Source: Torulaspora globosa (taxonomy: Eukaryota; Ascomycota; Saccharomycetes; Saccharomycetales; Saccharomycetaceae). Taken from it: a DNA stretch of 64,000 nucleotides. Position 1 is the first letter of the stretch, and every line of letters starts with the position of its first letter. Made by a program: the position numbers and the translations under genes. The notes under the pieces are model-generated. The model saw nothing but the letters and a program-made list of their open reading frames with translations, ran no database searches and was not told the origin of the DNA. The stretch covers positions 186,001 to 250,000 of the forward strand of contig NC_050730.1 in assembly GCF_014133895.1 (NCBI RefSeq), written 5' to 3'. Below are positions 28,462-41,414 of the stretch, piece by piece.

Positions 28462-31400
28462 CTATCCTAATACGACAACTAAATCACCAGCGTCCACAAT
28501 GTCTCCGTTCCTGTGAAGGATTCTTAAAACTGTACCATCTCTAGTGGAGGAGACTGTCATTTCAGTTTTCATGGCCTCTACTATGATCAGACTTTGACCA
28601 GCCTTCACCTTGTCACCTACAGATACTACGGGCTTCCAGAACCTACCTGAATGCTCGGAATAGATTAGCTCAGCATCCTCTGGGTATGTTTCTTGCGCAA
28701 CTTCCTCCGCCACTCCATCGCTGTCAAGTTCAGAGTTCGCGACTTGAATCAATTTGGCAAATTCGGCAGATTTCTCGCCCATTTGATTCTGTTGAAAAGC
28801 CTCGATAGAATCGATATTCTCTTGAATCCATGCTAAGTACTTCTTATGATCAAAGACACTTTCTTCGATCTCAACTTCGAACTGGCCGTTTTCACAATCC
28901 TCTGTGAGCTTGTCAAGCTCTCTTTCTGACACAGGATAGAATTCAACTTGGTCAAATGGATTTAACAGCCATGGCTGCGTAGAGGAAGACCCTAGCATAA
29001 GTTTATCCCAAATTGGGACAGTTCTCCCTACTAATTGATAACCGCCTGGACTTGATGCAGCGTATATGCACATGTACATTCCACCAAGTCCAACAACGCC
29101 CCGTTCAGTGTAAGTTCTGGATGGGTTGTATTTAGTGCCAAGCAGTCTTTGACGCGGGTCAAGAGGCACAGCACAAGGTGAACCTAAAAACACATCGCCC
29201 AGCCCGAGAACCATAAATTTGGCGCTGTACATGAGGTTTCTCACATCTTCGCGACCAATTCCATTGACGTCGGCAATGAAGTCAACATTGTTAGGTAGCC
29301 AAGGCGCAGAGCTGCGAATCGTTTCTTGATAACGAGTAACGCATGCAAGAGTCTTAGAGTCTTCAAATGCCATTGGCAGCCTGATTATCCTTGACCTCAC
29401 GGACCAGTTTTTATCGAACTGAATTTCGTTTTCATATGCTAGAAGAATTTCCAACAATTTCTTTTGACTGATCCGTGAGTCAAACTCAATCAACACGGAT
29501 CTGACGCCCTGCGACATCTCAACGATTCCTATAGTACGATGCTTTTCGACTAATTTGATCAAGCGATCTATTCTGTACGAAATGTTAAGATCCATCTCAT
29601 TCTCTCCATACTCAACGAGGATATAGCGATCACCAGCCTGTCTATATGTTACTTTGGGCGATAAATCTGATCTTTTAGGCAGCTGGGCCAAAATTGGATT
29701 TTCAGGAGGCGTTATTTCCCAAGATTTGACGCTTAGATGGCTGGCATCTAAGTTCTCGATCGCTTCATCCTGAGAAACTTTTATTTCTCTCGCAGCTTCG
29801 TATGTAACTGGGACGAACTGAATCAAATCACCAGGCTTCAGTTGACCAACTTTCCACAGCTCACCCTCTGGAACGACCGCCTGACAAACGAAGCCGCCAA
29901 GCGATGGCCCGTCACAAGTCACAATCACGGGCTCATCACCAGTGAAGTTTAAAGCCCCAATAGAGTACACATAATCATGAGCATTGGAAGGATGAAGACC
30001 AGCTTCACCACCGTCAGTTCTGGCCCACTCAGGTTTTGGTCCAATGAGTCTGACCCCGAATCTGTTGGAGTTATAATGCACTTTCCACTTGTCGCTAAAG
30101 AACTTTTCGATCGATTCTTGCTTGAAAAAATCAGGAGATCCATGGGGACCACAGGTCACACCTATTTTCCATTCCTTAGAGCTGGGAAATTCTGGTAAAA
30201 GTTCTTTAGGAGCTGCTTGAGGTGGATACACTGGGCTAGGAAGAGAGGAGCAAGGCAGTTCTGGTTGGTTTATGAAAAGAACATCGCCCAATTTCAGAAC
30301 TCTACCATTATAGCCACCGAATTCTCCTAAAGTAAAGGTGGACCTAGATCCCAGATATTCAGGCACATCGATACCATTTCTTACGGCTAGATAAGCTCGG
30401 CAACCTCTGGTCAATTTGCCAATTGCCAACACATCACCTGGACGTATGGATATAGGCTCATTCAATTCAACATGTACGTCATTGAGACAACATTCAACCT
30501 CTCCGCCGGTGACTGCCACGATGGTTTCCGTATGAAATTTGATCTTTGGACCAGTCAAGGTTATCTCAATTGCAGGGGCCTTTCTGTCGTTACCAACAAT
30601 TCTGTTGGCCAATCTGAATGAATAAGCATCCATGGGACCTGATGGAGGGACACCAATTCGCCAGTAACCTACTCTACCTGGGTAATCTTGCACACTTGTA
30701 TGTGCGCCGGGAGAAAGTATTTCAATTGCCGCAGGCCTATAGCAATAAGAGTCCAAGACTTTGGTTGCAACCTTGGCCTGCTTAAACATGTCGGAAGACG
30801 CAATGGATCTCAAATAATCTAAATTGGTGATACACCCGTAGACAGAGGTCTCATTTAAAGCTTTGTTCAGTTTCAAAATAGCTTCATTTCGATCTCTGCC
30901 ATGCACAATAATTTTTGCTAGAGTTGGATCATACTCCGATGACACTATTGTGCCCTTCGAGACCCATGTATCAACACGAGCCCACTTCGGGAAAGTGATC
31001 TCAGTTAGTTGCCCAGGTGATGGACGAAACCCTTTAACTGGGTTCTCAGCATACAATCTAGCTTCGATGGAGGCCCCACTTACGCTGATTTTACTTGGGT
31101 CAAAGTCAGGAGGATCATCGGCAGCGATTCTCAACATCCATTCCACTAAATCTAAACCTGTAACCATTTCCGTTATTGGATGCTCGACTTGAAGCCTTGC
31201 ATTGACTTCAAGGAAATAAAATTCATCTCTCTTTTCGTCGTAGATAAATTCGACAGTTCCGGCACACTTATAATGCATTAGAGAACCTAAGCTTTCAGCA
31301 GCTTGCCTCATTTTAGCACGAGTAGCTTCTGGTAGGTTAGGAGCCGGAGTTTCTTCGATAATTTTCTGGTTGCGCCGCTGCAATGAGCAATCCCGTTCGC

Positions 31401-33936
31401 CGAGTGCAATGGCTTTACCCCGGCCGTCACCCATCATTTGAATTTCGACGTGTCTTGCATTCTCGACAAAGCGCTCCAAAAATACTCCGGAGTCGCCAAA
31501 ATACGATTTACCTTGATGTTGAACAGTCTCAAACACCCTCTCAATATCAGCTTCGGAATCTACTTTCTGCAAACCGATACCACCACCTCCAGCGGTGGAC
31601 TTAACCATGACTGGGTACTCCAGTTTGGCAGCAATCTTTTTCGCATCTGCTGCTGATGAAACCAGAGGGGATCCAGGAACCAACGGAACCCCTGCCTTCT
31701 CTGCAATTTCCCTAGCAGAATGTTTCAAACCGAGCTTTCTTATCGCTGCACCTGATGGGCCTACGAAAACGATACCCTCTTGTTGACACTTGTCGGAGAA
31801 ATCAGCATTTTCTGAAAGAAATCCATAACCTGGTATGATTGCTTCTGCACCCGTAACCTTGGCTGCGTTGATGATTTTATTGATGTCGAGATAGGTTTCA
31901 GCTGCCGTCTTGCCATGCAGGGGGATTGTCAGATCAGCATCCAAGACATGTTGAGAGTATTTATCGGGATCCGAGTAAACAGCCACTGACTTTATGTTCA
32001 GCTTCTTCAAAGTACGAATTATGCGAACGGCAATTTCGCCTCTGTTCGCAACCAGTACAGTCTCGAAGGGTTTTCTCTTTTCTTTGGCCGAGTAATCAAT
32101 GTATGCTTTGAAACCGCCATGAGGCGTAATATTTACAGAGCCTTTAGTCAGATAACCTGCTTCTTCGCAGATAAATGATTTCACCCACTCACCTGACTCT
32201 AGCTCGACTGACCCTATTCCAAGTGGTTCGGGTACCATTGCAATAAAGGTTCCAAAATTTTCGAGTGGGATGCTGTAAAGCTCCAGTTGGATCTGCGCTC
32301 CGCTCTCCTCCCCCACCCTTCTGAGCCCTGGTTTCAGGATCGGTCCCGTTTTCGGTAGCGCGTAAAGCTCATATTTCTTGGAAGTTCTTGGAGATGATAT
32401 GTAACTTGCATTGACTTTCTCCAACTGCCAATGCAATGGCAAGCCCTTCAGGTGTGCGCCAACCACGGCCAACTTTATAGAGGAGGAGGGATTGATCAAA
32501 GGGCCGGTGAGTTCATCGTCCTTAGTTGTAACGCTTCTGTCCAAAAATCTACCGTAACTTCTACTTCCGTCAGGAAAGGCGACTTTAAAAAAACGCCTGG
32601 CCAGATCCAGTAATGCAAAGTCGGTAAATTTCTTACCAATCAAAGTGATACCATTAGGCAGTCCATCAGATCTAAATCCGGTTGGTATAGCCAAAGCTGC
32701 CATATCGGCCAAGTTCACGAAATTGGTCCATGTACCTTGTCTCGAGTTAACCAAGACAGGTTCTTTGGCGACTTCATCGAATGTTGGGTTGAGAGGGCAG
32801 GTTGGAACGCATAGCACATCCACTTCTTTTAATAGCTTACTTATCTTTTGAAGTATTCTTTGCCGTTTGTACTCATATTTGAAAGCATCCGCAGCGTCGT
32901 AATTAGTGGCAGTCTTGATGATAGAGATCACAGTTGGATCAAGGGTTTCCTTCGGCGGATTGGTTGCTAAGAAGTCTCTGATTGCCTCGTATCTTTCGGC
33001 CACCCAGGCACCTTCATATAAACAGCGAGCCAATTCCATTAGAGGCTCGAAGTCAATTTCGACTATATCAGCGCCAGTTTGTTTCAAGTTTTCAACAGCT
33101 TGGCTGTAGATCTTTGGGTTTTCATTGTCACCATACCATGGGAGATATTGCGGTATAGCGATCTTAACCTGCTCAGGAAATTTCTGCAAAGGGTTCCTTT
33201 GATATGGTCTCGAGTACTCGTCATTGGCAAGGTCTTCTTGACATAATACTTTGAAACAACGCTCTGCATCGCTCAAGTTAAGAGCAAAGATGGAAACACA
33301 ATCCAGCGACTTGCATGCTGGGATAACCCCACTGCATGACAACGCGCCTTTTGTCGGCTTAAGACCGATTAGGTTGTTCAAAGCAGCGGGCACTCTTCCT
33401 GAACCAGCGGTATCCGTGCCTAAGGCCAGAGGCACAATTCCGCGTGCCACCACTGACGCGGAACCGGATGACGAACCACCGGAGACATGTTTATCGCTGA
33501 AAACGCACGGAGTCTTCCCATAAGGAGACCTGCAACCCACCAAACCTGTGGCAAACTGGTCTAAATTCGTTTTTCCAATTACGATGGCACCCGCATTCCT
33601 CAGTAGCTCCACCACTGTAGAATCCTTTTCCGGAATATATGCGTATGAAGGGCAAGCACCAGTCGTTGAGCTGCCCTTAACGTCAATATTATCTTTAATT
33701 GCAACTGGTACACCATAGAGCGGTAAAGATTCCTTCCCCGCCTTGCTTTGCAGAACCTGCCATTGATGCTCAAGATCGCTCTCTGGTACCACTGATATCC
33801 ATGCTGGGTCGGCGGGCGCGGTTTCTTGAGACTTCAGTAACGAGCGCAACAGTTGAAGCGATGATTCTGGGGTGGACTTGCAATGGAACTCCATCCATTC
33901 TTTGACTGACCAACCTAGGCAGTCCAGTTCAGTCAT
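28462..33936 (-). CDS. DUR1,2: Dur1,2 urea amidolyase (allophanate hydrolase + urea carboxylase)
   Basis: A 1824-residue bifunctional enzyme that carboxylates urea to allophanate with ATP and biotin, then hydrolyses allophanate to ammonia and CO2. N-terminal amidase domain: catalytic Lys81 (AIKDN), the Ser-rich loop GGSSSGSA near 153-160 and nucleophile Ser179 in TDTAGSGR. From about residue 625: biotin carboxylase with the ATP-grasp loop KSTAGGGGIG, a carboxyltransferase region (two KipI/KipA-like parts, including PGRVGYWRIGVPPSGPMD), and a C-terminal biotinyl domain with EAMKTEM, biotinyl Lys about 1790. S. cerevisiae Dur1,2 has 1835 residues. It is convergent with FTH1 with a gap of 112 bp. 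The upstream GATAA cluster fits nitrogen-catabolite control. Confidence 0.98.
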   Translation of the reverse strand: MTELDCLGWSVKEWMEFHCKSTPESSLQLLRSLLKSQETAPADPAWISVVPESDLEHQWQVLQSKAGKESLPLYGVPVAIKDNIDVKGSSTTGACPSYAYIPEKDSTVVELLRNAGAIVIGKTNLDQFATGLVGCRSPYGKTPCVFSDKHVSGGSSSGSASVVARGIVPLALGTDTAGSGRVPAALNNLIGLKPTKGALSCSGVIPACKSLDCVSIFALNLSDAERCFKVLCQEDLANDEYSRPYQRNPLQKFPEQVKIAIPQYLPWYGDNENPKIYSQAVENLKQTGADIVEIDFEPLMELARCLYEGAWVAERYEAIRDFLATNPPKETLDPTVISIIKTATNYDAADAFKYEYKRQRILQKISKLLKEVDVLCVPTCPLNPTFDEVAKEPVLVNSRQGTWTNFVNLADMAALAIPTGFRSDGLPNGITLIGKKFTDFALLDLARRFFKVAFPDGSRSYGRFLDRSVTTKDDELTGPLINPSSSIKLAVVGAHLKGLPLHWQLEKVNASYISSPRTSKKYELYALPKTGPILKPGLRRVGEESGAQIQLELYSIPLENFGTFIAMVPEPLGIGSVELESGEWVKSFICEEAGYLTKGSVNITPHGGFKAYIDYSAKEKRKPFETVLVANRGEIAVRIIRTLKKLNIKSVAVYSDPDKYSQHVLDADLTIPLHGKTAAETYLDINKIINAAKVTGAEAIIPGYGFLSENADFSDKCQQEGIVFVGPSGAAIRKLGLKHSAREIAEKAGVPLVPGSPLVSSAADAKKIAAKLEYPVMVKSTAGGGGIGLQKVDSEADIERVFETVQHQGKSYFGDSGVFLERFVENARHVEIQMMGDGRGKAIALGERDCSLQRRNQKIIEETPAPNLPEATRAKMRQAAESLGSLMHYKCAGTVEFIYDEKRDEFYFLEVNARLQVEHPITEMVTGLDLVEWMLRIAADDPPDFDPSKISVSGASIEARLYAENPVKGFRPSPGQLTEITFPKWARVDTWVSKGTIVSSEYDPTLAKIIVHGRDRNEAILKLNKALNETSVYGCITNLDYLRSIASSDMFKQAKVATKVLDSYCYRPAAIEILSPGAHTSVQDYPGRVGYWRIGVPPSGPMDAYSFRLANRIVGNDRKAPAIEITLTGPKIKFHTETIVAVTGGEVECCLNDVHVELNEPISIRPGDVLAIGKLTRGCRAYLAVRNGIDVPEYLGSRSTFTLGEFGGYNGRVLKLGDVLFINQPELPCSSLPSPVYPPQAAPKELLPEFPSSKEWKIGVTCGPHGSPDFFKQESIEKFFSDKWKVHYNSNRFGVRLIGPKPEWARTDGGEAGLHPSNAHDYVYSIGALNFTGDEPVIVTCDGPSLGGFVCQAVVPEGELWKVGQLKPGDLIQFVPVTYEAAREIKVSQDEAIENLDASHLSVKSWEITPPENPILAQLPKRSDLSPKVTYRQAGDRYILVEYGENEMDLNISYRIDRLIKLVEKHRTIGIVEMSQGVRSVLIEFDSRISQKKLLEILLAYENEIQFDKNWSVRSRIIRLPMAFEDSKTLACVTRYQETIRSSAPWLPNNVDFIADVNGIGREDVRNLMYSAKFMVLGLGDVFLGSPCAVPLDPRQRLLGTKYNPSRTYTERGVVGLGGMYMCIYAASSPGGYQLVGRTVPIWDKLMLGSSSTQPWLLNPFDQVEFYPVSERELDKLTEDCENGQFEVEIEESVFDHKKYLAWIQENIDSIEAFQQNQMGEKSAEFAKLIQVANSELDSDGVAEEVAQETYPEDAELIYSEHSGRFWKPVVSVGDKVKAGQSLIIVEAMKTEMTVSSTRDGTVLRILHRNGDIVDAGDLVVVLG

Positions 33937-34724: not shown

Positions 34725-34796
34725 AGCTCGCACTCAGGTTCGAACTAAGGACCAACAGATTTGCAATCTGCTGCGCTACCACTGCGCCATACGAGC
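34725..34796 (-). tRNA. tC(GCA): tRNA-Cys (GCA)
   Basis: A 72-nt cloverleaf on the reverse strand. The acceptor stem pairs GCTCGTA with TGCGAGC (one G-U pair), the D arm contains the A box TGGCGCAGTGGTAGCGC, the anticodon loop is TTGCAAA giving anticodon GCA, and the T arm has the B-box GTTCGAAC. The discriminator base is U, as required by cysteinyl-tRNA synthetase. No intron is present. A T7 terminator follows (34722-34716 on the reverse strand). It lies at the edge of the gene-poor, transposon-scarred region. Confidence 0.97.
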
Positions 34797-34803
34797 AAGT
34801 AAT

Positions 34804-35310
34804 TGTTGGGTTGTGGTTTTATAGCTCGGTATTAGCTCGGTATTAGCTCTGTACTTAGTCGTAGGTTCAGGTTTCTTGAAGTAACTTAAGCGGTAAGTTA
34901 TCAAGATCAATAATGGATTGTGTGGTCATCAGACGTCAGTCTATGATTCCCTTGACTGGTTGATTTCCTTCGTAATGACCACTCCATGTCCTCTCATTCT
35001 TTGCTAGGCTCGAACTACATGAGTTCAACTGAAGCTTGTATCAGTACTAGATGCAACAACAGTAGAACGATTTGGACATACTAGCACTGATGCGTCTTTC
35101 GCACTACTATCAGACGTATCCACTAGCCATGATGAGGGGCAGTCTGAAACATGAGGAGACAGCTTAGGAAGAGTTAGCTAACACTAAGGAGTGCGGAGAT
35201 CACGACCTCAAGTCATCACGGAAGTCCCTATTCGAGAGGTATAAATAGGAGCCAACGGATCCTAGTTAGAGAGTAGCTGCTCACTGTATAGAGCCAAGCT
35301 TAATTAAAGA
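34804..35310 (+). repeat. Diverged LTR-like repeat, copy 1
   Basis: A block beginning TGTTGGG just upstream of the tRNA-Cys 5' end and including segments repeated at 35424-36107. The best shared pieces are GGTAAGTTATCAAGA (34892-34906 versus 35447-35461), a 19-nt match with one mismatch around CTAGATGCAACA (35040-35058 versus 35827-35845), and CGAGAGGTATAAA versus CGAGAGGTGTAAA (35233 versus 35990). It has a TATAAATA element at 35240-35247. Position beside a tRNA and the internal TATA fit a solo LTR of a Ty3-like element, but exact ends and a target-site duplication could not be established. Confidence 0.4.
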
Positions 35311-35423
35311 AGCAACCATATCAATCCACGAATAATACAGAAACGTATTATTACATGTTACGTTGTCATAAGGGACGGTATTATAAGGATAACTTAGTTG
35401 TTGCCAAGACGACTTAGTTGTTC

Positions 35424-36107
35424 AACCAGCATGGAAGCAGCTTAAAGGTAAGTTATCAAGACAAAGAACGGATCTATTATCACTTGCTTCTATTAGCTCT
35501 AACACTAAGTGCACCTGAAACGCCGTTTAAATCTGACCTGGCTGGCCCTCTATTTATTCATTTCAATTCCAATATTGGACTCCTCTCCTTGACTTCCACT
35601 AGCAACCTTTTGATTCAGAGCGACTGATTATGTGTAGCATAATCGTCTCACATTCTTCAGACCACCAGTGTTAAACTGGAAGCCGTACCATGGTTCCTCC
35701 ATTATCGCCTCGTATAGTATCAGATGGCACTCTGGACTTGTCTCGGATAGACCATCCACTTGGACTTTGTCCTTTCATGGCTCATGACTCATGGGCCCTG
35801 TTCGCGTTTGAGCTTCATTAGCCGGCATCAGTTCTAGATGCAACATTCCTGTGCGTGCTAGATATATCAGCTCGGCAAGATGCAATCGCATGTCCTGGCC
35901 TTGCGGGTAGGTGAATGGCTAGCCAAGACTTATGTCGCTATAGGGATAGCGATCAGCATATCCGTCCCAAGCATTTGATAGCGAGTCAACGAGAGGTGTA
36001 AATGAAACATATAAAAGGGACCCAATTGAAAGCTTTCAGAGAGCCACTGAGATGCAGAGCAGGACAAGGATTCGATAGGATACAGACCTAGCTTAATAGG
36101 AATAAAA
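35424..36107 (+). repeat. Diverged LTR-like repeat, copy 2, serving as upstream region of the secreted peptide gene
   Basis: The second copy of the repeat described at 34804, in the same orientation and about 550-790 bp away, with insertions. Its right end carries TATAAAAG at 36010-36017 and finishes 11 bp or less before the ATG at 36108. The last part (36055-36096) also matches 39646-39687 at 35 of 42 positions without gaps. No ORF in it is convincing. Either an LTR or a duplicated gene promoter would explain it; the downstream gene appears to use its TATA box. Confidence 0.4.
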
Positions 36108-36719
36108 ATGAGGAACTGTCTGATTGCCTTTATTATCACATTGTTCAGCATTTGTAGCATTGGTAGATGCTACGTTATTCCAGGCAATACTACTCTGGAA
36201 CTGTTTGCGAACATCTCAATAACGGAGGTGCCCGGCGATGCGTTAGACATACTGACTGATGGTTTTAGGGTGACCGCAGATCTCACAGTTTATCAGGTTG
36301 CACATATGCTCTACACTCGCACACCCTATGTATTGAATGACTCGGTGGTGTTTCTGGACAACAACGGAAACATTCTGGCATCAGGAGGTGCTGAGATTGA
36401 GGGCGACCCTGAAGGACAAAGTATCAGGCTCTCGTTGACAGAAGCTCAGGCCGATGCAGTGAACCAGGTACCATACATTTATGAGGAGCTTGAACAAGAC
36501 ATTTTCGAACTCATTGCAGACACTTATTCGAGTGTGAGCGATAGTAATACACTTGAACGGAGAGGTAATCCACTAAATTATATCTGTGGGTTTAACCTGA
36601 ACTACAACTCATGCAAGAGCTACAAAAATTGTAACAGAGAAAGGAGTGCCGGCAGCGGCAAAAAATGTGGGTGTCTGAAGGCAGGCCAAATGAGGCTATG
36701 CTTGACATATAAGCCTTAG
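36108..36719 (+). CDS. Secreted cysteine-rich peptide precursor (killer/antimicrobial-peptide-like, unknown family)
   Basis: A 203-residue intact ORF with a clear signal peptide (MRNCLIAFIITLFSICSIGR, then a Cys), one early NxT site and an acidic propeptide of about 130 residues. A dibasic Kex2-type site (LERR) lies at residues 151-152. The remaining 51 residues hold six cysteines spaced C-x8-C-x5-C-x11-C-x1-C-x8-C, with nine Lys/Arg and one Glu, so a small, cationic, disulfide-rich peptide would be released. This layout is that of yeast killer toxins and defensin-like antimicrobial peptides, but I do not recognise the family and assign no target. A TATA box lies 91 bp upstream. It sits among retrotransposon remains and has no counterpart in the flanking conserved gene order. 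No internal break is present. Confidence 0.7.
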   Translation: MRNCLIAFIITLFSICSIGRCYVIPGNTTLELFANISITEVPGDALDILTDGFRVTADLTVYQVAHMLYTRTPYVLNDSVVFLDNNGNILASGGAEIEGDPEGQSIRLSLTEAQADAVNQVPYIYEELEQDIFELIADTYSSVSDSNTLERRGNPLNYICGFNLNYNSCKSYKNCNRERSAGSGKKCGCLKAGQMRLCLTYKP

Positions 36720-36796
36720 AGCGGACGTTTTATTGGTCTGCTACTAAATACCCGAGCAGGCCAGTTTAATAACAATAAAATAACCAAAATGCCAAG

Positions 36797-36859
36797 CAAT
36801 AAAACAATAAAACAAAACAATAAAACAATAAAACAAAACAATAAAACAATAAAACATAT
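36797..36859. repeat. 21-bp tandem repeat (about 3 copies)
   Basis: The unit CAATAAAACAATAAAACAAAA is repeated head to tail at 36797-36817 and 36818-36838, with a third copy diverging in its last bases by 36859. It is itself built of CAATAAAA subrepeats. On the reverse strand it keeps a short frame open with a 7-residue hydrophobic repeat, which I regard as a by-product of the 21-bp period. Confidence 0.9.
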
Positions 36860-37189
36860 AAAACAAAAACAGTCTACAATTATAAGCTAACCCAAATAAT
36901 AATAAACCCAAATAAACGCGGTGATAAACCCAAACCCCAACGAGCAACATCTACACGTAGTACACACGGATGCCGTTAAAATAAGGCATTCTTAGCATAT
37001 GACGTACGGCTAATACAGTAAATGAACGCATCTTAACATGGGGTACGTACTCAGGATATATTGTCCAAGTCCAAGTGGTAGACTGGCGTCCATACCGGAA
37101 GCGAGTTGAAGAGAGCACTTTCACGCTACTACCACCACATCTCAAATCTCAAATCTAAATATCGGCAGACAGGAAGAAACGACTTGCTT
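36860..37189. other. Gene-free stretch before the Ty3-like remnant
   Basis: About 330 bp of AT-rich then mixed sequence with no ORF, RNA gene or recognised retroelement protein (no Gag or protease similarity seen). Confidence 0.45.
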
Positions 37190-39690
37190 GTACTGCCTTA
37201 GACAAGAAGGAAGTTTCTCAAGAAATTGACATAAAGCCAGGTGAACGATTGCCAAGGATACCGCCGTACAGTCGATCCCCAACGGAGGAGAAACAGATTA
37301 AGAAAATTGTTCGTTGCTTGCTCTAGAAGGGATTCGTCGAACCGTCGAAAAGTCCCTACAGCTCACCAGTCGCGCTAGTTAAAAAGAACGATGGCTCGTA
37401 CCGTTTATGTGTGGACTACCGAGTCCTACTGAAGCCACGATCAAAGATCCATGGCAAAGGTAGGGAACTCCATCGAAGTTAGATCTCCACTCCGGTTATC
37501 ACCAAAGACCGGGCCAAAAGGAAGACGTCCCAAAGACTGCTTTCACCATTCCATAGTGGTAAATACCAATACCGAGTGATGTGTCTGGGTTAGTCAACGC
37601 GCGTCTAGCTATCTGGCTGACATCTTCCGTGATCTGCCGTTCGCCCTAGTGTACCTCGGTGACATCCTGGTAATATCAGCAACAGGAGGCGACACATCAA
37701 ACATTTCAATACGGTACCCAAAAGACCACCAGTTAATCGCAAGGACAGGAAGTGTAGATTCCTACAACCGGAATTGAGTTCCTGAGATACCACCTCTCCG
37801 AGCGTTGTATCCGACCAATAAAGGATAAGTGCAAAGCGATAACGCTATCCCTGAGTGCAGGACTTTACGGGACGCACAGCGATTCTTAGGAATGATAAAC
37901 TACTATCGGCGTTTTATTCCCCGGTGCTCAATGGTAGCACGACCACTGATAACATCACGAACTCAAGTTCAGACAGAGGCTTTCGAAGAATTTAAGAATC
38001 TACTTGTACCCTTGCACCTGATAAGCAATCCCGCTTAACGACAGATGCTATTAATCTAGGTCCCGGAGCGGTGTTAGAAGAAATGGAGAATAAGAAGGTA
38101 ACAGGCGTAGTTGGATATTTTTCGAAATCGACTCCAAGGCGCCCAAAACAACTACCCGGTAGGAGAGCTGGAGCTCTTGGGTATTATCGAAAGTCTACAC
38201 CACTTCAAATACTTGCTACACGGCAGAGACAGATCATATCTCACCATCAATGCGACTAGCAAGATGGCTAGACGAGTTGGCGGAATATGACATAGACCTA
38301 GAGTACCCTGATAATGTCGTGGCGGACGCCTTGTCAAAACATGTGGCGGTTAACGCAGTAGAACGCTTACCAACATTGGAACTATGGCAATGGGCCCCAA
38401 ACGTACGAAAAGAAGCGTATTAGGCCGCAATAATGTACATATTGGAACCAGAAAACAAGGCGACCAAACTGCAAACCAAGGATTGGCAACAATCGGTATC
38501 GAAACTGCGCCGATCACCACAAACCGTGCAACATTTTAACTCCACGAAGGTACTTTACGTTATGGCGAGCGTTACCGTGCACCAAACCCCAGATCCCCGA
38601 AGTCTTAGAAGTTTACCACGGTCATGTCCCGTTTGGCGGACATTACGGGCAATCCATCGCCTACAGCAAGTTTGCATAGAAAGGCCTGAGATGATGTTGT
38701 CAGTGCGCTGGTACGTCAAAAGTTGCCTCAATGCCAAAGCATGAAGAACTAGTAGAAATGCAACCAGGGCCCACTGTTGCCATTGCCGATCTTCAGCCGA
38801 TGGCTCGATATCTCAACGGATTTTGCCACAGACCTTCCACGAACGCTCCAAGGCTACGACATGATATTGATTGCGGTCTCTAGGTTCTCAAAGAGGGCGC
38901 ATTTCATCCCTGGTCAAAAGACCCTGGGCCCCCGCGGTGTAATAGACCTATTACACCGGTTTGTTTTCGCTTATCACGGCTTCCCACGGACCATAACGAT
39001 TGAGACATACGATTCTTGTCTAAGATGTTCAAAGAAACGACAGCTTGCCTGGGCATCCGGCTCATGAACCATCCCCAGACTGATGGCCGATCCGAGCGTA
39101 CGGTTCAAATCGTGAATCGCCTTTGAAGGACGTACACTACCATGGATCATGCGCAGTGGGATGCTTGGCTTCCCAGATTGAGTACGTATACAACTCGACA
39201 CCGACGAGGACTTCCCAGAAAACTCCTTTCGAAATTTACTGCGGCTACATACCGAATGAACCGGTGATCAACACGGCTGATGAGTTATCAGCAAGATCTT
39301 TTTGAGTCGTCGAATTCGCTCGTCATCTTAAGACAGTTACAGTGACCAAGGACTTTCTAGCGGCAGCGCAACACAGACAGCAGACCTCTTACAATAGCGG
39401 GAGAAAGGAAGTTACAACGAACTGGTTTTGCCGATTATAACCAAGAAGCACGGGGTATTCAACAGTAAATGGCTAAAGAAGCTTATGACTAGAGAAGGAC
39501 AGTACAACCAACGCCCTCCCATAGACAAACGCACAACGCTGAACAAGCATCAGCATATCATAGCCATTGTCGGACGATACGACCTGGACGGATACCATTG
39601 CAAGTTGCAATACGTGGGCCCCCACATCACGGAGTTACTCAGGTTCAGAACAGGACCAGGATTCCATAGGACACAGTCATAGCATAACTA
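37190..39690 (+). mobile_element. Decayed Ty3/gypsy-type retrotransposon, pol region only
   Basis: A degenerate forward-strand pol. Recognisable pieces in order: reverse transcriptase start with [19 protein letters not shown] and RLCVDYR (37340-37420, after an in-frame TAG at 37324), the polymerase motif changed from YLDD to YLGD at 37652-37663, and DAQRFLGMINYYRRFIPRCS (about 37870-37930). Then come RNase H (GVVGYFSKST, about 38100), an integrase zinc/core region (RWLDISTDFATDLP and FSKRAHFIPG, 38790-38920, then IEYVYNSTPTRTSQKTPFEI near 39180) and an integrase C-terminus (near 39600). Several frameshifts and stops separate them. Gag and protease are not seen, so the 5' part is lost. The order and motifs follow Saccharomyces Ty3. 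It cannot encode functional enzymes. Confidence 0.93.
39646..39687 (+). repeat. 42-bp repeat matching the segment just upstream of the secreted peptide gene
   Basis: Ungapped similarity of 35 of 42 bases to 36055-36096. It lies at the right end of the Ty3-like remnant. It may mark an LTR-derived end of the element or a shared leader sequence. Confidence 0.5.
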
Positions 39691-39959
39691 TATATCATGC
39701 TTGTTTTAGTCTACGAGAGCATTGCAGCTAGCCAGTCTTGCGGCACCAAGACATGGAAACGCTGGCCTGCTGCCAAGAGCGAGGAAAGGATCTAGAGAGG
39801 TAATCTGAGCTTATATATACCCATCGCTGGTCTAGCTTCTCTTTGTATGCTAATTTTCCATTCATATAAGAGCAGAAAAATTTCACATATTGCAAGATTG
39901 AGCTCATCGCACCTTGTGCTAAGCTCATCGCCGCCAGTTAGAACATCTCTGAGGGTGCA

Positions 39960-41414
39960 ATGGATGCCAAGAGGAAGCTTGATAGTTTGGAAGACCAGGA
40001 GGTCTCACTTCCTTCCAAAAAGAGTCGGCTGGAGGGAGGATCTGCTCAGTTCGATGGCAGGCGTAAGCAGAAGGAGACACATAGTCAGTTTTACGAATAT
40101 TCGCAAGTGATCCAGTTAGAACATGCTGTGACCAAATTCCTAGAGGCTTATAAATGTATCACGGAGCTTTCTCCCAACCTGAAAGCCTACAATGAAGTTC
40201 TGGAAAATCAGGACAAAGTGCCAGTGCAAATCCTGCAGGCATTGGCTCGCTATAAATTGAAGCTGGCGGCAGAGTTGAAATCTCTGCAGGAATTGGATAA
40301 ATCTCCGCTACTATCGGAGCTCATGGATTTTGAGTCGCGTTTTGAAGAGGATAAGCTGACGAGTCAACCGATTATTAGCGAGCTCAGTAAGAAGGATGTA
40401 AAGAAGTTGGTTGTCGGGAAGATCGATTACAAGGCGTCTGAAGGCAAAGACAGTAGTACAGAGGACGATGATGACAATGAGGACAGCTACGATCCGTCAT
40501 CCGCTGGTAAGCCACCAAGGGAAAATAAATGGCCTCCTAAGTTGCCTCAGATTAGAGATCCGGCAATCAGAGCCAGGGTGTTCATTCATAAATCCACGAT
40601 CAAGGATAAACTATATCTCAAAGAAACGGAAATGATCAACGCTCACAATGAAAGACTCGAGTTTTTGGGGGATTCTGTCTTGAACACAGTTATGACTATG
40701 ATCATCTACAATAAATTCCCACGCTTCACCGAAGGACAGTTATCAAAGCTCAGAATGAGCCTGGTGAGTAATGAGCGCATAAAGGCGTGGTCGTTTCTTT
40801 ACGGTTTCGACAAGCACTTGAAAACTAACTTCCAAGATAATGTGGCTTTCCAGCAGGGGAAACGAAAGTTATTTGCGGACGTTTTTGAAGCGTATATTGG
40901 CGGATTGATTGAGGATGATCCTAAACATAACATGCCAAAGGTTCGAAAATGGTTAAGTAAGCTGGCAAAACCGATTATAGAGGATGCAACTCAGAAGGAC
41001 ATTGACTTGGAATCGACGGATAATGTCGATTTGAATGCCAAAAGACAACTATACTCTCTGATTGGGTATGCTGCGTTGAACTTGCATTACGTTACCGTTA
41101 AAAGGCCCACTGCGGGTGATCCCAACACCGTTGTCGAATGTCGCATAGGGGATGGTACTACATTGGCCTCAGGAGCTGGTCGAAATGTCAAAATTGCTGG
41201 CTTAAGAGCTGCTCAAAACGTTCTTCGAAATAAACCACTTCTTGAGAAATATGCAAGCTTGCGTGCTGCGATCCCAAGGACAGAGTCAGTTGTGAAAAAG
41301 GATGAGTTAGCGAGAACAGGCAGCAGCTCAAATGTAAATAGAGATAAATCTCCATCGATGGGTCCATCAGGAGCCATTAAGTTAAGTTCAGAAGGTCAGT
41401 TTTTTATCGGCTGA
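39960..41414 (+). CDS. RNT1: Rnt1, nuclear RNase III
   Basis: A 484-residue double-strand-specific endoribonuclease that cleaves AGNN-tetraloop hairpins in pre-rRNA, snRNA and snoRNA precursors. An N-terminal domain is followed by the RNase III domain with signature [14 protein letters not shown] (about residues 228-241; catalytic acidic residues included) and a second acidic pair in [16 protein letters not shown]. The C-terminal dsRBD ([16 protein letters not shown] to [13 protein letters not shown]) and a Ser/Lys-rich nuclear-targeting tail follow. S. cerevisiae Rnt1 has 471 residues. It is convergent with ISW2 with a gap of 54 bp. It is the first conserved gene after the transposon-scarred region. 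Confidence 0.97.

What the first reader, a model, noticed from the sequence alone, without database searches (positions are those of the whole stretch)
36108..36719. Orphan secreted cysteine-rich peptide precursor with Kex2 site
The ORF has every mark of a processed secreted peptide: signal sequence, acidic propeptide, dibasic LERR site at residues 151-152, and a 51-residue mature part with six Cys and net charge about +8. It sits alone in a region scarred by retroelements, outside the conserved gene order. I do not recognise the family; the layout suggests a killer or antimicrobial peptide, a class often carried by mobile or rapidly evolving loci. A host immunity function has not been seen nearby.
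Basis: partly seen in the sequence, partly recalled or inferred. Interest (0 to 1): 0.75.

Follow-up and report, generated by a model that had tools for sequence, protein, structure and literature searches.

The report
LTR-driven yeast secreted peptide gene
A yeast gene for a small, positively charged, secreted peptide of an undescribed family, possibly a weapon against rival microbes, sits inside the wreck of a retrotransposon and appears to use that element's own promoter.

Summary
ORF 36108-36719 (203 aa) encodes a signal-like N-terminus, an acidic propeptide, one dibasic site (R151-R152) and a 51-residue basic C-terminal part (net +8, pI 9.5) with six cysteines. It is a real gene, not an orphan: three relatives (66-73% identical) keep the frame, all six mature cysteines and a dibasic site (LERR, or LDKR in one). 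One is Torulaspora globosa HG537_0C01290, 'hypothetical protein'. No known family or confident fold was found; one copy was found in the genome.

The setting goes beyond 'scarred by retroelements'. The ORF lies inside one dead Ty3-type element. An LTR with its TATA box ends at the ATG. Pol of the same family, same strand, resumes at 37054. Between them gag is replaced by the ORF, an A-rich tract (the most one-base-rich stretch in the window) and an unexplained spacer. This looks like an mRNA copied into a retrotransposon, as others proposed for some chromosomal killer-toxin genes. The LTR probably supplies the promoter.

Most likely it is a Kex2-processed antagonistic (killer or antimicrobial) peptide. 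Secretion and processing are well supported by conservation; killing is inferred; expression and relatives' DNA could not be tested.

The parts
34725..34796 (-). tRNA-Cys (GCA); dispersed LTR-type repeat fragments (34834-36105) lie on its 5' side
   Evidence: ARAGORN; repeats
35850..36105 (+). Truncated LTR (U3-R, about 255 of about 331 bases) of a dispersed Ty3-type family; the last ~80 bases of the LTR are missing. The 5' end is inferred from offset and a TG start; one locus (C5:378148-378414) matches across it, from 35782.
   Evidence: 15 other places in the genome; 7 of these 15 match up to 36105-36109, the other 8 end between 36042 and 36087; LTR extent from copy-to-copy alignments; C5 match
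36003..36009 (+). TGAAACA, core of a pheromone response element (name recalled), inside the LTR
   Evidence: at this place in 10 of 15 other LTR copies; single site only
36010..36017 (+). TATA box (TATAAAAG) of the LTR, 98 bases before the ATG
   Evidence: sequence; seen in the LTR copies
36108..36170 (+). Signal-like N-terminus, residues 1-21
   Evidence: sequence; conserved; -3/-1 residues small
36171..36557 (+). Acidic propeptide, residues 22-150; core 40-135 is 74-77% identical in all six pairs
36558..36563 (+). Dibasic Kex2-type site R151-R152 (LERR)
   Evidence: dibasic in 4 of 4 family members, LDKR in P0004
36564..36716 (+). Predicted mature peptide, 51 aa, six Cys (C-x8-C-x5-C-x11-C-x-C-x8-C), net +8; stop codon 36717-36719
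36797..36866 (+). A-rich tract on the coding strand (74% A), tandem CAATAAAA units; the best 70-mer here is 0.76 of one base against 0.53 for the next place in the window
   Evidence: a 29-base piece of the array, up to 3 mismatches, found only here in the genome
37054..39413 (+). Decayed Ty3-type pol remnant; sharp left junction at 37054
   Evidence: domains identified in the C2 relative L048 (RNase H, integrase zinc-binding); the window's own piece 37829-38035 had no Pfam match
39418..39632 (+). Segment that lies between pol and the 3' LTR in the related element L048

Best explanation
The ORF is a functional, lineage-restricted gene for a secreted peptide precursor. Shown: a conserved open frame, signal-like N-terminus, acidic propeptide, conserved dibasic site, six conserved cysteines, and a position between a Ty3-type LTR and pol of the same family. 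Inferred: the precursor enters the ER, is cut by signal peptidase, folds with three disulfides while the acidic propeptide covers the basic part, is cut after Arg152 by Kex2 in the Golgi, and is released as a ~5.7 kDa cationic peptide that harms competing microbes (killer or antimicrobial type), with the precursor or propeptide as the likeliest self-protection. Inferred: the gene came to its place as an mRNA copy joined to a Ty3-type element during reverse transcription (A-rich 3' end towards pol, 5' end joined to the LTR), and is transcribed from the LTR promoter.
For: Homologs and conserved features. Frame kept under divergence: neutral simulation to 70% identity leaves no stop in 44 of 1000 runs and all six Cys in 85 of 1000, while the adjoining pol remnant has 27-33 stops per frame. 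LTR up to the ATG: 15 other genomic copies, 7 of which match as far as 36105-36109. Sharp replacement of gag: five element loci align with each other 74 bases or more upstream of the pol junction in 10 of 10 pairs; the window aligns there with none of them beyond 6 bases. A-rich tract. tRNA nearby. Precedents: KTA2 in S. cerevisiae Y55, flanked by LTRs downstream of a tRNA gene (PMC12691639, passages); the two non-subtelomeric KKT killer genes, close to tRNA genes, and the retrotransposon-capture model (PMC7888664, passages).
Against: No expression, secretion or killing data. No similarity to any known toxin was found. The models are poor (mean pLDDT 47.9 and 57.6). P0004 is less polar than the others (propeptide -7, mature +4) and has a second KR inside its mature part, at residue 185. 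The A-rich tract is a CAATAAAA array, not plain A, and a 187-base spacer of unknown origin separates it from pol. Whether the relatives also sit behind an LTR or at the same place is unknown, so capture could be older, younger or different. The propeptide core is more conserved than the mature part in 5 of 6 pairs, which also fits a job other than mere transport. GC and GC3 of the gene (0.449, 0.485) lie within or near those of six flanking genes, so composition gives no sign of foreign origin. Most KKT genes are subtelomeric; this gene is not near a contig end (C4:222108 of 1122226).
Confidence: 0.5

Rival explanations
1. A secreted signal or mating-related peptide: the LTR brings a pheromone-responsive promoter and the peptide is made during mating or cell-cell contact, not to kill.
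For: TGAAACA core directly beside the TATA box of the LTR, at that place in 10 of 15 other copies; Kex2 also processes pheromone precursors (recalled).
Against: A single element site; known yeast peptide pheromones are short and lack disulfides (recalled); a 51-aa, six-cysteine basic peptide looks more like a toxin or defensin.
Confidence: 0.12
2. A cell-surface or inhibitor protein (for example a protease inhibitor or wall-binding peptide), or one in which the propeptide is the working part, with no antagonistic role.
For: Propeptide core 40-135 is 74-77% identical in all six pairs, against 59-75% for the mature part; it holds the better-modelled part of the precursor (pLDDT blocks up to 75).
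Against: The cut site and all six mature cysteines are kept in 4 of 4 members while the linker before the site is only 33-53% identical, so release of the C-terminal part seems itself constrained.
Confidence: 0.2
3. The gene is ancient at this locus and Ty3-type elements simply inserted around it; the abutting LTR is a coincidence of nested insertions next to a tRNA gene.
For: Nested LTR-type fragments crowd the region; if descent is vertical, the relatives show that the gene is older than the divergence of their lineages.
Against: LTR, block and pol lie on the same strand in the order of one element, and the block begins and ends at element junctions; an A-rich tract on the coding strand lies on the 3' side.
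Confidence: 0.25
4. A decaying gene or chance ORF.
For: It lies in a dead element; a 203-aa ORF arises in 2 of 500 random sequences.
Against: Three full-length relatives with conserved features; survival without stops at this divergence is unlikely under neutrality.
Confidence: 0.03

Closest known systems
Chromosomal and dsRNA-satellite yeast killer toxins (K1/KKT, K2/KHS, Klus/KHR, K28, K62/KTA, Kbarr-1)
   Same: Secreted, Kex-type processed precursor with N-glycosylation sequons; lineage-restricted; some chromosomal copies lie near tRNA genes or LTRs; an A-rich tract follows the ORF as in M satellites.
   Different: No similarity to a named toxin turned up in the searches made; one dibasic site, as in K62 but unlike the others; a single small basic product rather than an alpha/beta pair; no GAAAAA leader and no downstream-of-poly(A) motif.
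Defensin-like (CS-alpha-beta) antimicrobial peptides
KTA2 of S. cerevisiae Y55 (PMC12691639, passages read)
   Same: A toxin-type gene flanked by LTRs downstream of a tRNA gene, taken by its authors to suggest acquisition by retrotransposition.
   Different: Here the gene abuts the LTR at its ATG and is followed by pol of the same element family, and it belongs to a different protein family with several relatives.

Membership tests
Kex2-processed secreted peptide precursor (general class) | N-terminal signal sequence | tested here: met
   hydrophobic N-terminus with small -3/-1 residues in 4 of 4 family members; judged by eye, no signal-peptide predictor available
Kex2-processed secreted peptide precursor (general class) | conserved dibasic KR/RR site before the mature part | tested here: met
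   RR in 3, KR in 1 of 4
Kex2-processed secreted peptide precursor (general class) | actual cleavage and secretion | not testable with these tools
   needs protein data
Known Saccharomyces killer-toxin families (K1/KKT, K2, Klus, K28, K62) | sequence homology | tested here: inconclusive
   profile search returned 4 proteins at E up to 10 among 4631 candidates, none a named toxin; the search takes only proteins of 0.55-1.75 times the query's length, and no toxin sequence was compared directly
Known Saccharomyces killer-toxin families (K1/K2 type) | several Kex2 sites giving an alpha/beta pair | tested here: not met
   one KR/RR site in the window precursor
M-type dsRNA satellite origin | GAAAAA at the 5' end of the transcript | tested here: not met
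   bases before the ATG read GGAATAAAA and are alignable to the LTR
M-type dsRNA satellite origin | A-rich tract downstream of the ORF | tested here: met
   36797-36866, 74% A, but an array of CAATAAAA units rather than plain A
M-type dsRNA satellite origin | downstream-of-poly(A) motif (PMC7888664) | tested here: not met
   best match in 36720-37300 has 8 mismatches of 20
CS-alpha-beta defensin | Cys signature with CxxxC in the helix and final CxC (recalled) | tested here: not met
   C-x8-C-x5-C-x11-C-x-C-x8-C in the window; six Cys kept in 4 of 4
CS-alpha-beta defensin | fold | tested here: inconclusive
Ty-captured mRNA copy | gene joined to LTR at its 5' end and followed by element sequence, same strand | tested here: met
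Ty-captured mRNA copy | poly(A)-like 3' end directly at the junction with the element | tested here: inconclusive
   A-rich tract present, but it ends 187 bases before the pol junction and that spacer is unexplained

The most novel reading that the evidence does not exclude
A killer-type peptide gene, possibly from an M-type dsRNA satellite, was captured into the gag position of a Ty3-type element and is now driven by that element's pheromone-responsive LTR, so that a retrotransposon both delivered and regulates an antimicrobial weapon; it may have travelled between yeasts as element cargo.
Probability: 0.15. Interest if true: 0.75.

Novelty: new member of a known kind. Interest (0 to 1): 0.48.

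Why it matters
Capture of toxin genes by retrotransposons has been proposed for a few yeast killer genes from LTRs and tRNA genes nearby. Here an LTR runs to the ATG and pol of the same family follows on the same strand, which makes the model directly testable. The peptide family has no recognised relatives beyond the four proteins found here, one of them named as Torulaspora globosa; if it kills, it would add a small, single-site-processed, six-cysteine type to the known yeast killers.

Tried and rejected
Pfam for the window's precursor and two relatives (P0002, P0003; P0004 was not scanned): only ADGRF3_N far below its cut-off. PDB sequence searches with precursor, profile and mature part: nothing significant. 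Viral contigs and bacterial/archaeal genomes: no relative. Paralogs in the own genome with the window protein, with P0004 and with the mature part: only the gene itself. Full-length model against PDB: no match at E 0.001 or better.

Origin of the ORF from the element itself (gag or LTR): tblastn of the four precursors against seven element loci gave nothing better than E 0.64, and translated frames of the ORF gave the same. That the LTR reaches into the first codons looked attractive in 3 of 7 copies, but 147-148 of 1500 ATG controls and 69-72 of 1500 shuffles score as well there; the other four copies gain 0 or 1 point, which every control reaches. I do not claim it. A 25-base match of 36774-36798 to gag of the C1 element is in A-rich sequence and is not relied on.

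RNT1 of that strain may lie in the window's own 90% cluster (3 members), which would make the peptide (69%) far faster-evolving than its neighbour; this is inference only. dN/dS was not possible: no DNA of relatives could be fetched.

Literature: nine searches; nothing on this family among the rows listed, which were a part of the papers found. I saw listings and starts of abstracts, and passages of PMC13211469, PMC12691639, PMC7888664, PMC4569859 and PMC7282813; no paper was read whole.

Full report
What is there. The ORF 36108-36719 on the + strand encodes 203 aa. Residues 1-21 are a signal-like segment with small residues at -3/-1; residues 22-150 are acidic; R151-R152 is the only KR/RR site; residues 153-203 are basic (net +8, pI 9.51, 5668 Da) with six cysteines. 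In random sequence of this composition the longest ATG ORF averages 102 aa and reaches 203 in 2 of 500 trials.

It is a gene. A search of 5.8 billion proteins gave two relatives and a profile search one more (4 proteins including the window's own, among 4631 candidates, E up to 10). P0002 is 'hypothetical protein HG537_0C01290' of Torulaspora globosa; P0003 and P0004 have no name. They are 70, 73 and 66% identical to the window protein in the alignment. All four keep the six mature cysteines and a dibasic site; P0004 has LDKR for LERR. Net charges of residues 22 to the site are -17, -22, -24 and -7, and of the mature part +8, +5, +8 and +4 (window, P0002, P0003, P0004); P0004 is thus the least polar, and it has a second KR inside the mature part, at residue 185. 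P0003 ends in an additional Arg, which a Kex1-type carboxypeptidase would remove (inference). By region the pairwise identities are: signal 71-90%, pro core (40-135) 74-77%, linker before the site 33-53%, mature part 59-75%. A freely drifting linker between a conserved pro domain and a conserved cut site plus cysteine frame is what a processed precursor should show. Under neutral substitution to 70% identity only 44 of 1000 runs keep the frame free of stops, and 85 of 1000 keep all six cysteines. In the window's assembly (9.28 Mb, 8 contigs) one copy was found. The host is a Torulaspora-type yeast by its nearest named relative; its name was not given and I do not assign one.

The setting. The neighbours are a urea amidolyase gene (28462-33936, -) and an RNase III gene (39960-41414, +). 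Between them lie tRNA-Cys, nested LTR-type fragments and the ORF. The 5' flank of the ORF matches 15 other places in the genome; 7 of these match up to 36105-36109, that is to the ATG, and the other 8 end between 36042 and 36087. Copies define an LTR of about 331 bases starting with TG; the window copy holds about the first 255 bases, including the TATA box at 36010-36017, and lacks the last ~80. Its left end is inferred; one locus on C5 matches across it, from 35782. A possible extension into the first codons was tested and is not significant. Downstream, 37054-39413 and 39418-39632 match related elements on the same strand; in L048 the order is LTR, pol, the second segment, LTR, all on one strand. 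L048 encodes RNase H and integrase zinc-binding domains, which with this order I take as Ty3-type (recalled); the window's own short piece gave no Pfam match. Other elements continue to align with each other upstream of the 37054 junction, 74 bases or more in 10 of 10 pairs of five loci (a second, shorter stretch in L052 left out; it aligns only 0-22 bases upstream). The window aligns there with none of the five for more than 6 bases; further up it shares with L051 an LTR stretch and a 25-base A-rich match. So the gag part of one element has been replaced by the ORF block. The pol remnant itself is dead, with 27-33 stops per frame, while the ORF is intact.

The A-rich tract. Seventy-eight bases beyond the stop codon begins a stretch of 70 bases that is 74% A on the coding strand; the best 70-mer here is 0.76 of one base, the next place in the whole window 0.53. 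It is an array of CAATAAAA units; a 29-base piece of it, with up to 3 mismatches, was found only here in the genome. An A-rich 3' end followed by element sequence, and a 5' end joined to the LTR, is what copying of an mRNA during Ty reverse transcription would leave. Such capture was proposed for KKT killer genes, of which the two non-subtelomeric ones lie close to tRNA genes (PMC7888664, passages), and suggested for KTA2, flanked by LTRs (PMC12691639, passages). M-type killer satellites also have an A-rich tract after the toxin ORF (PMC4569859, passages), but the GAAAAA leader and the downstream motif are missing here. The spacer 36867-37053 is unexplained and weakens the case for a clean poly(A) junction.

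How it most likely works. Secretion and Kex2 processing follow from the conserved anatomy. The LTR most likely provides the promoter: its TATA box lies 98 bases before the ATG and nothing else intervenes. It carries one TGAAACA, the core of the pheromone response element as I recall it, at the same place in 10 of 15 other copies; whether it acts is unknown. For function, a single-copy, lineage-restricted, cationic six-cysteine peptide released from an acidic precursor fits an antagonistic peptide best. A structural, inhibitory or signalling role is not excluded, and the conserved propeptide deserves attention as chaperone or immunity factor.

What stands against this. There are no expression data, no relatives' DNA, no confident fold and no similarity to any toxin found. 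The T. globosa position could not be checked. GC of the gene is 0.449 and GC3 0.485, against 0.434-0.483 and 0.433-0.617 in six flanking genes, so no recent foreign origin is visible. The gene may be much older than its junction with this LTR.

Noticed in passing
34834-36105: Several dispersed LTR-type fragments are nested on the 5' side of tRNA-Cys, as expected of elements that integrate next to tRNA genes.
   Followed up: partly
36867-37053: 187 bases between the A-rich tract and the pol junction; the search with 36720-39950 gave no match elsewhere in the genome that covers them.
   Followed up: partly
36774-36798: 25 bases, 92% like a gag stretch of the C1 element L051; A-rich and possibly chance.
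   Followed up: partly
L050:1691-1960: A 136-base stretch directly repeated at 100% identity near an LTR copy on C6.
   Followed up: no
L052:891-4487: Nested partial duplications of element pieces on C3, one pair 92% identical over 358 columns.
   Followed up: no
36108-36716: The propeptide core (residues 40-135) is more conserved than the mature part in 5 of 6 pairs and is the better-modelled part of the precursor.
   Followed up: partly
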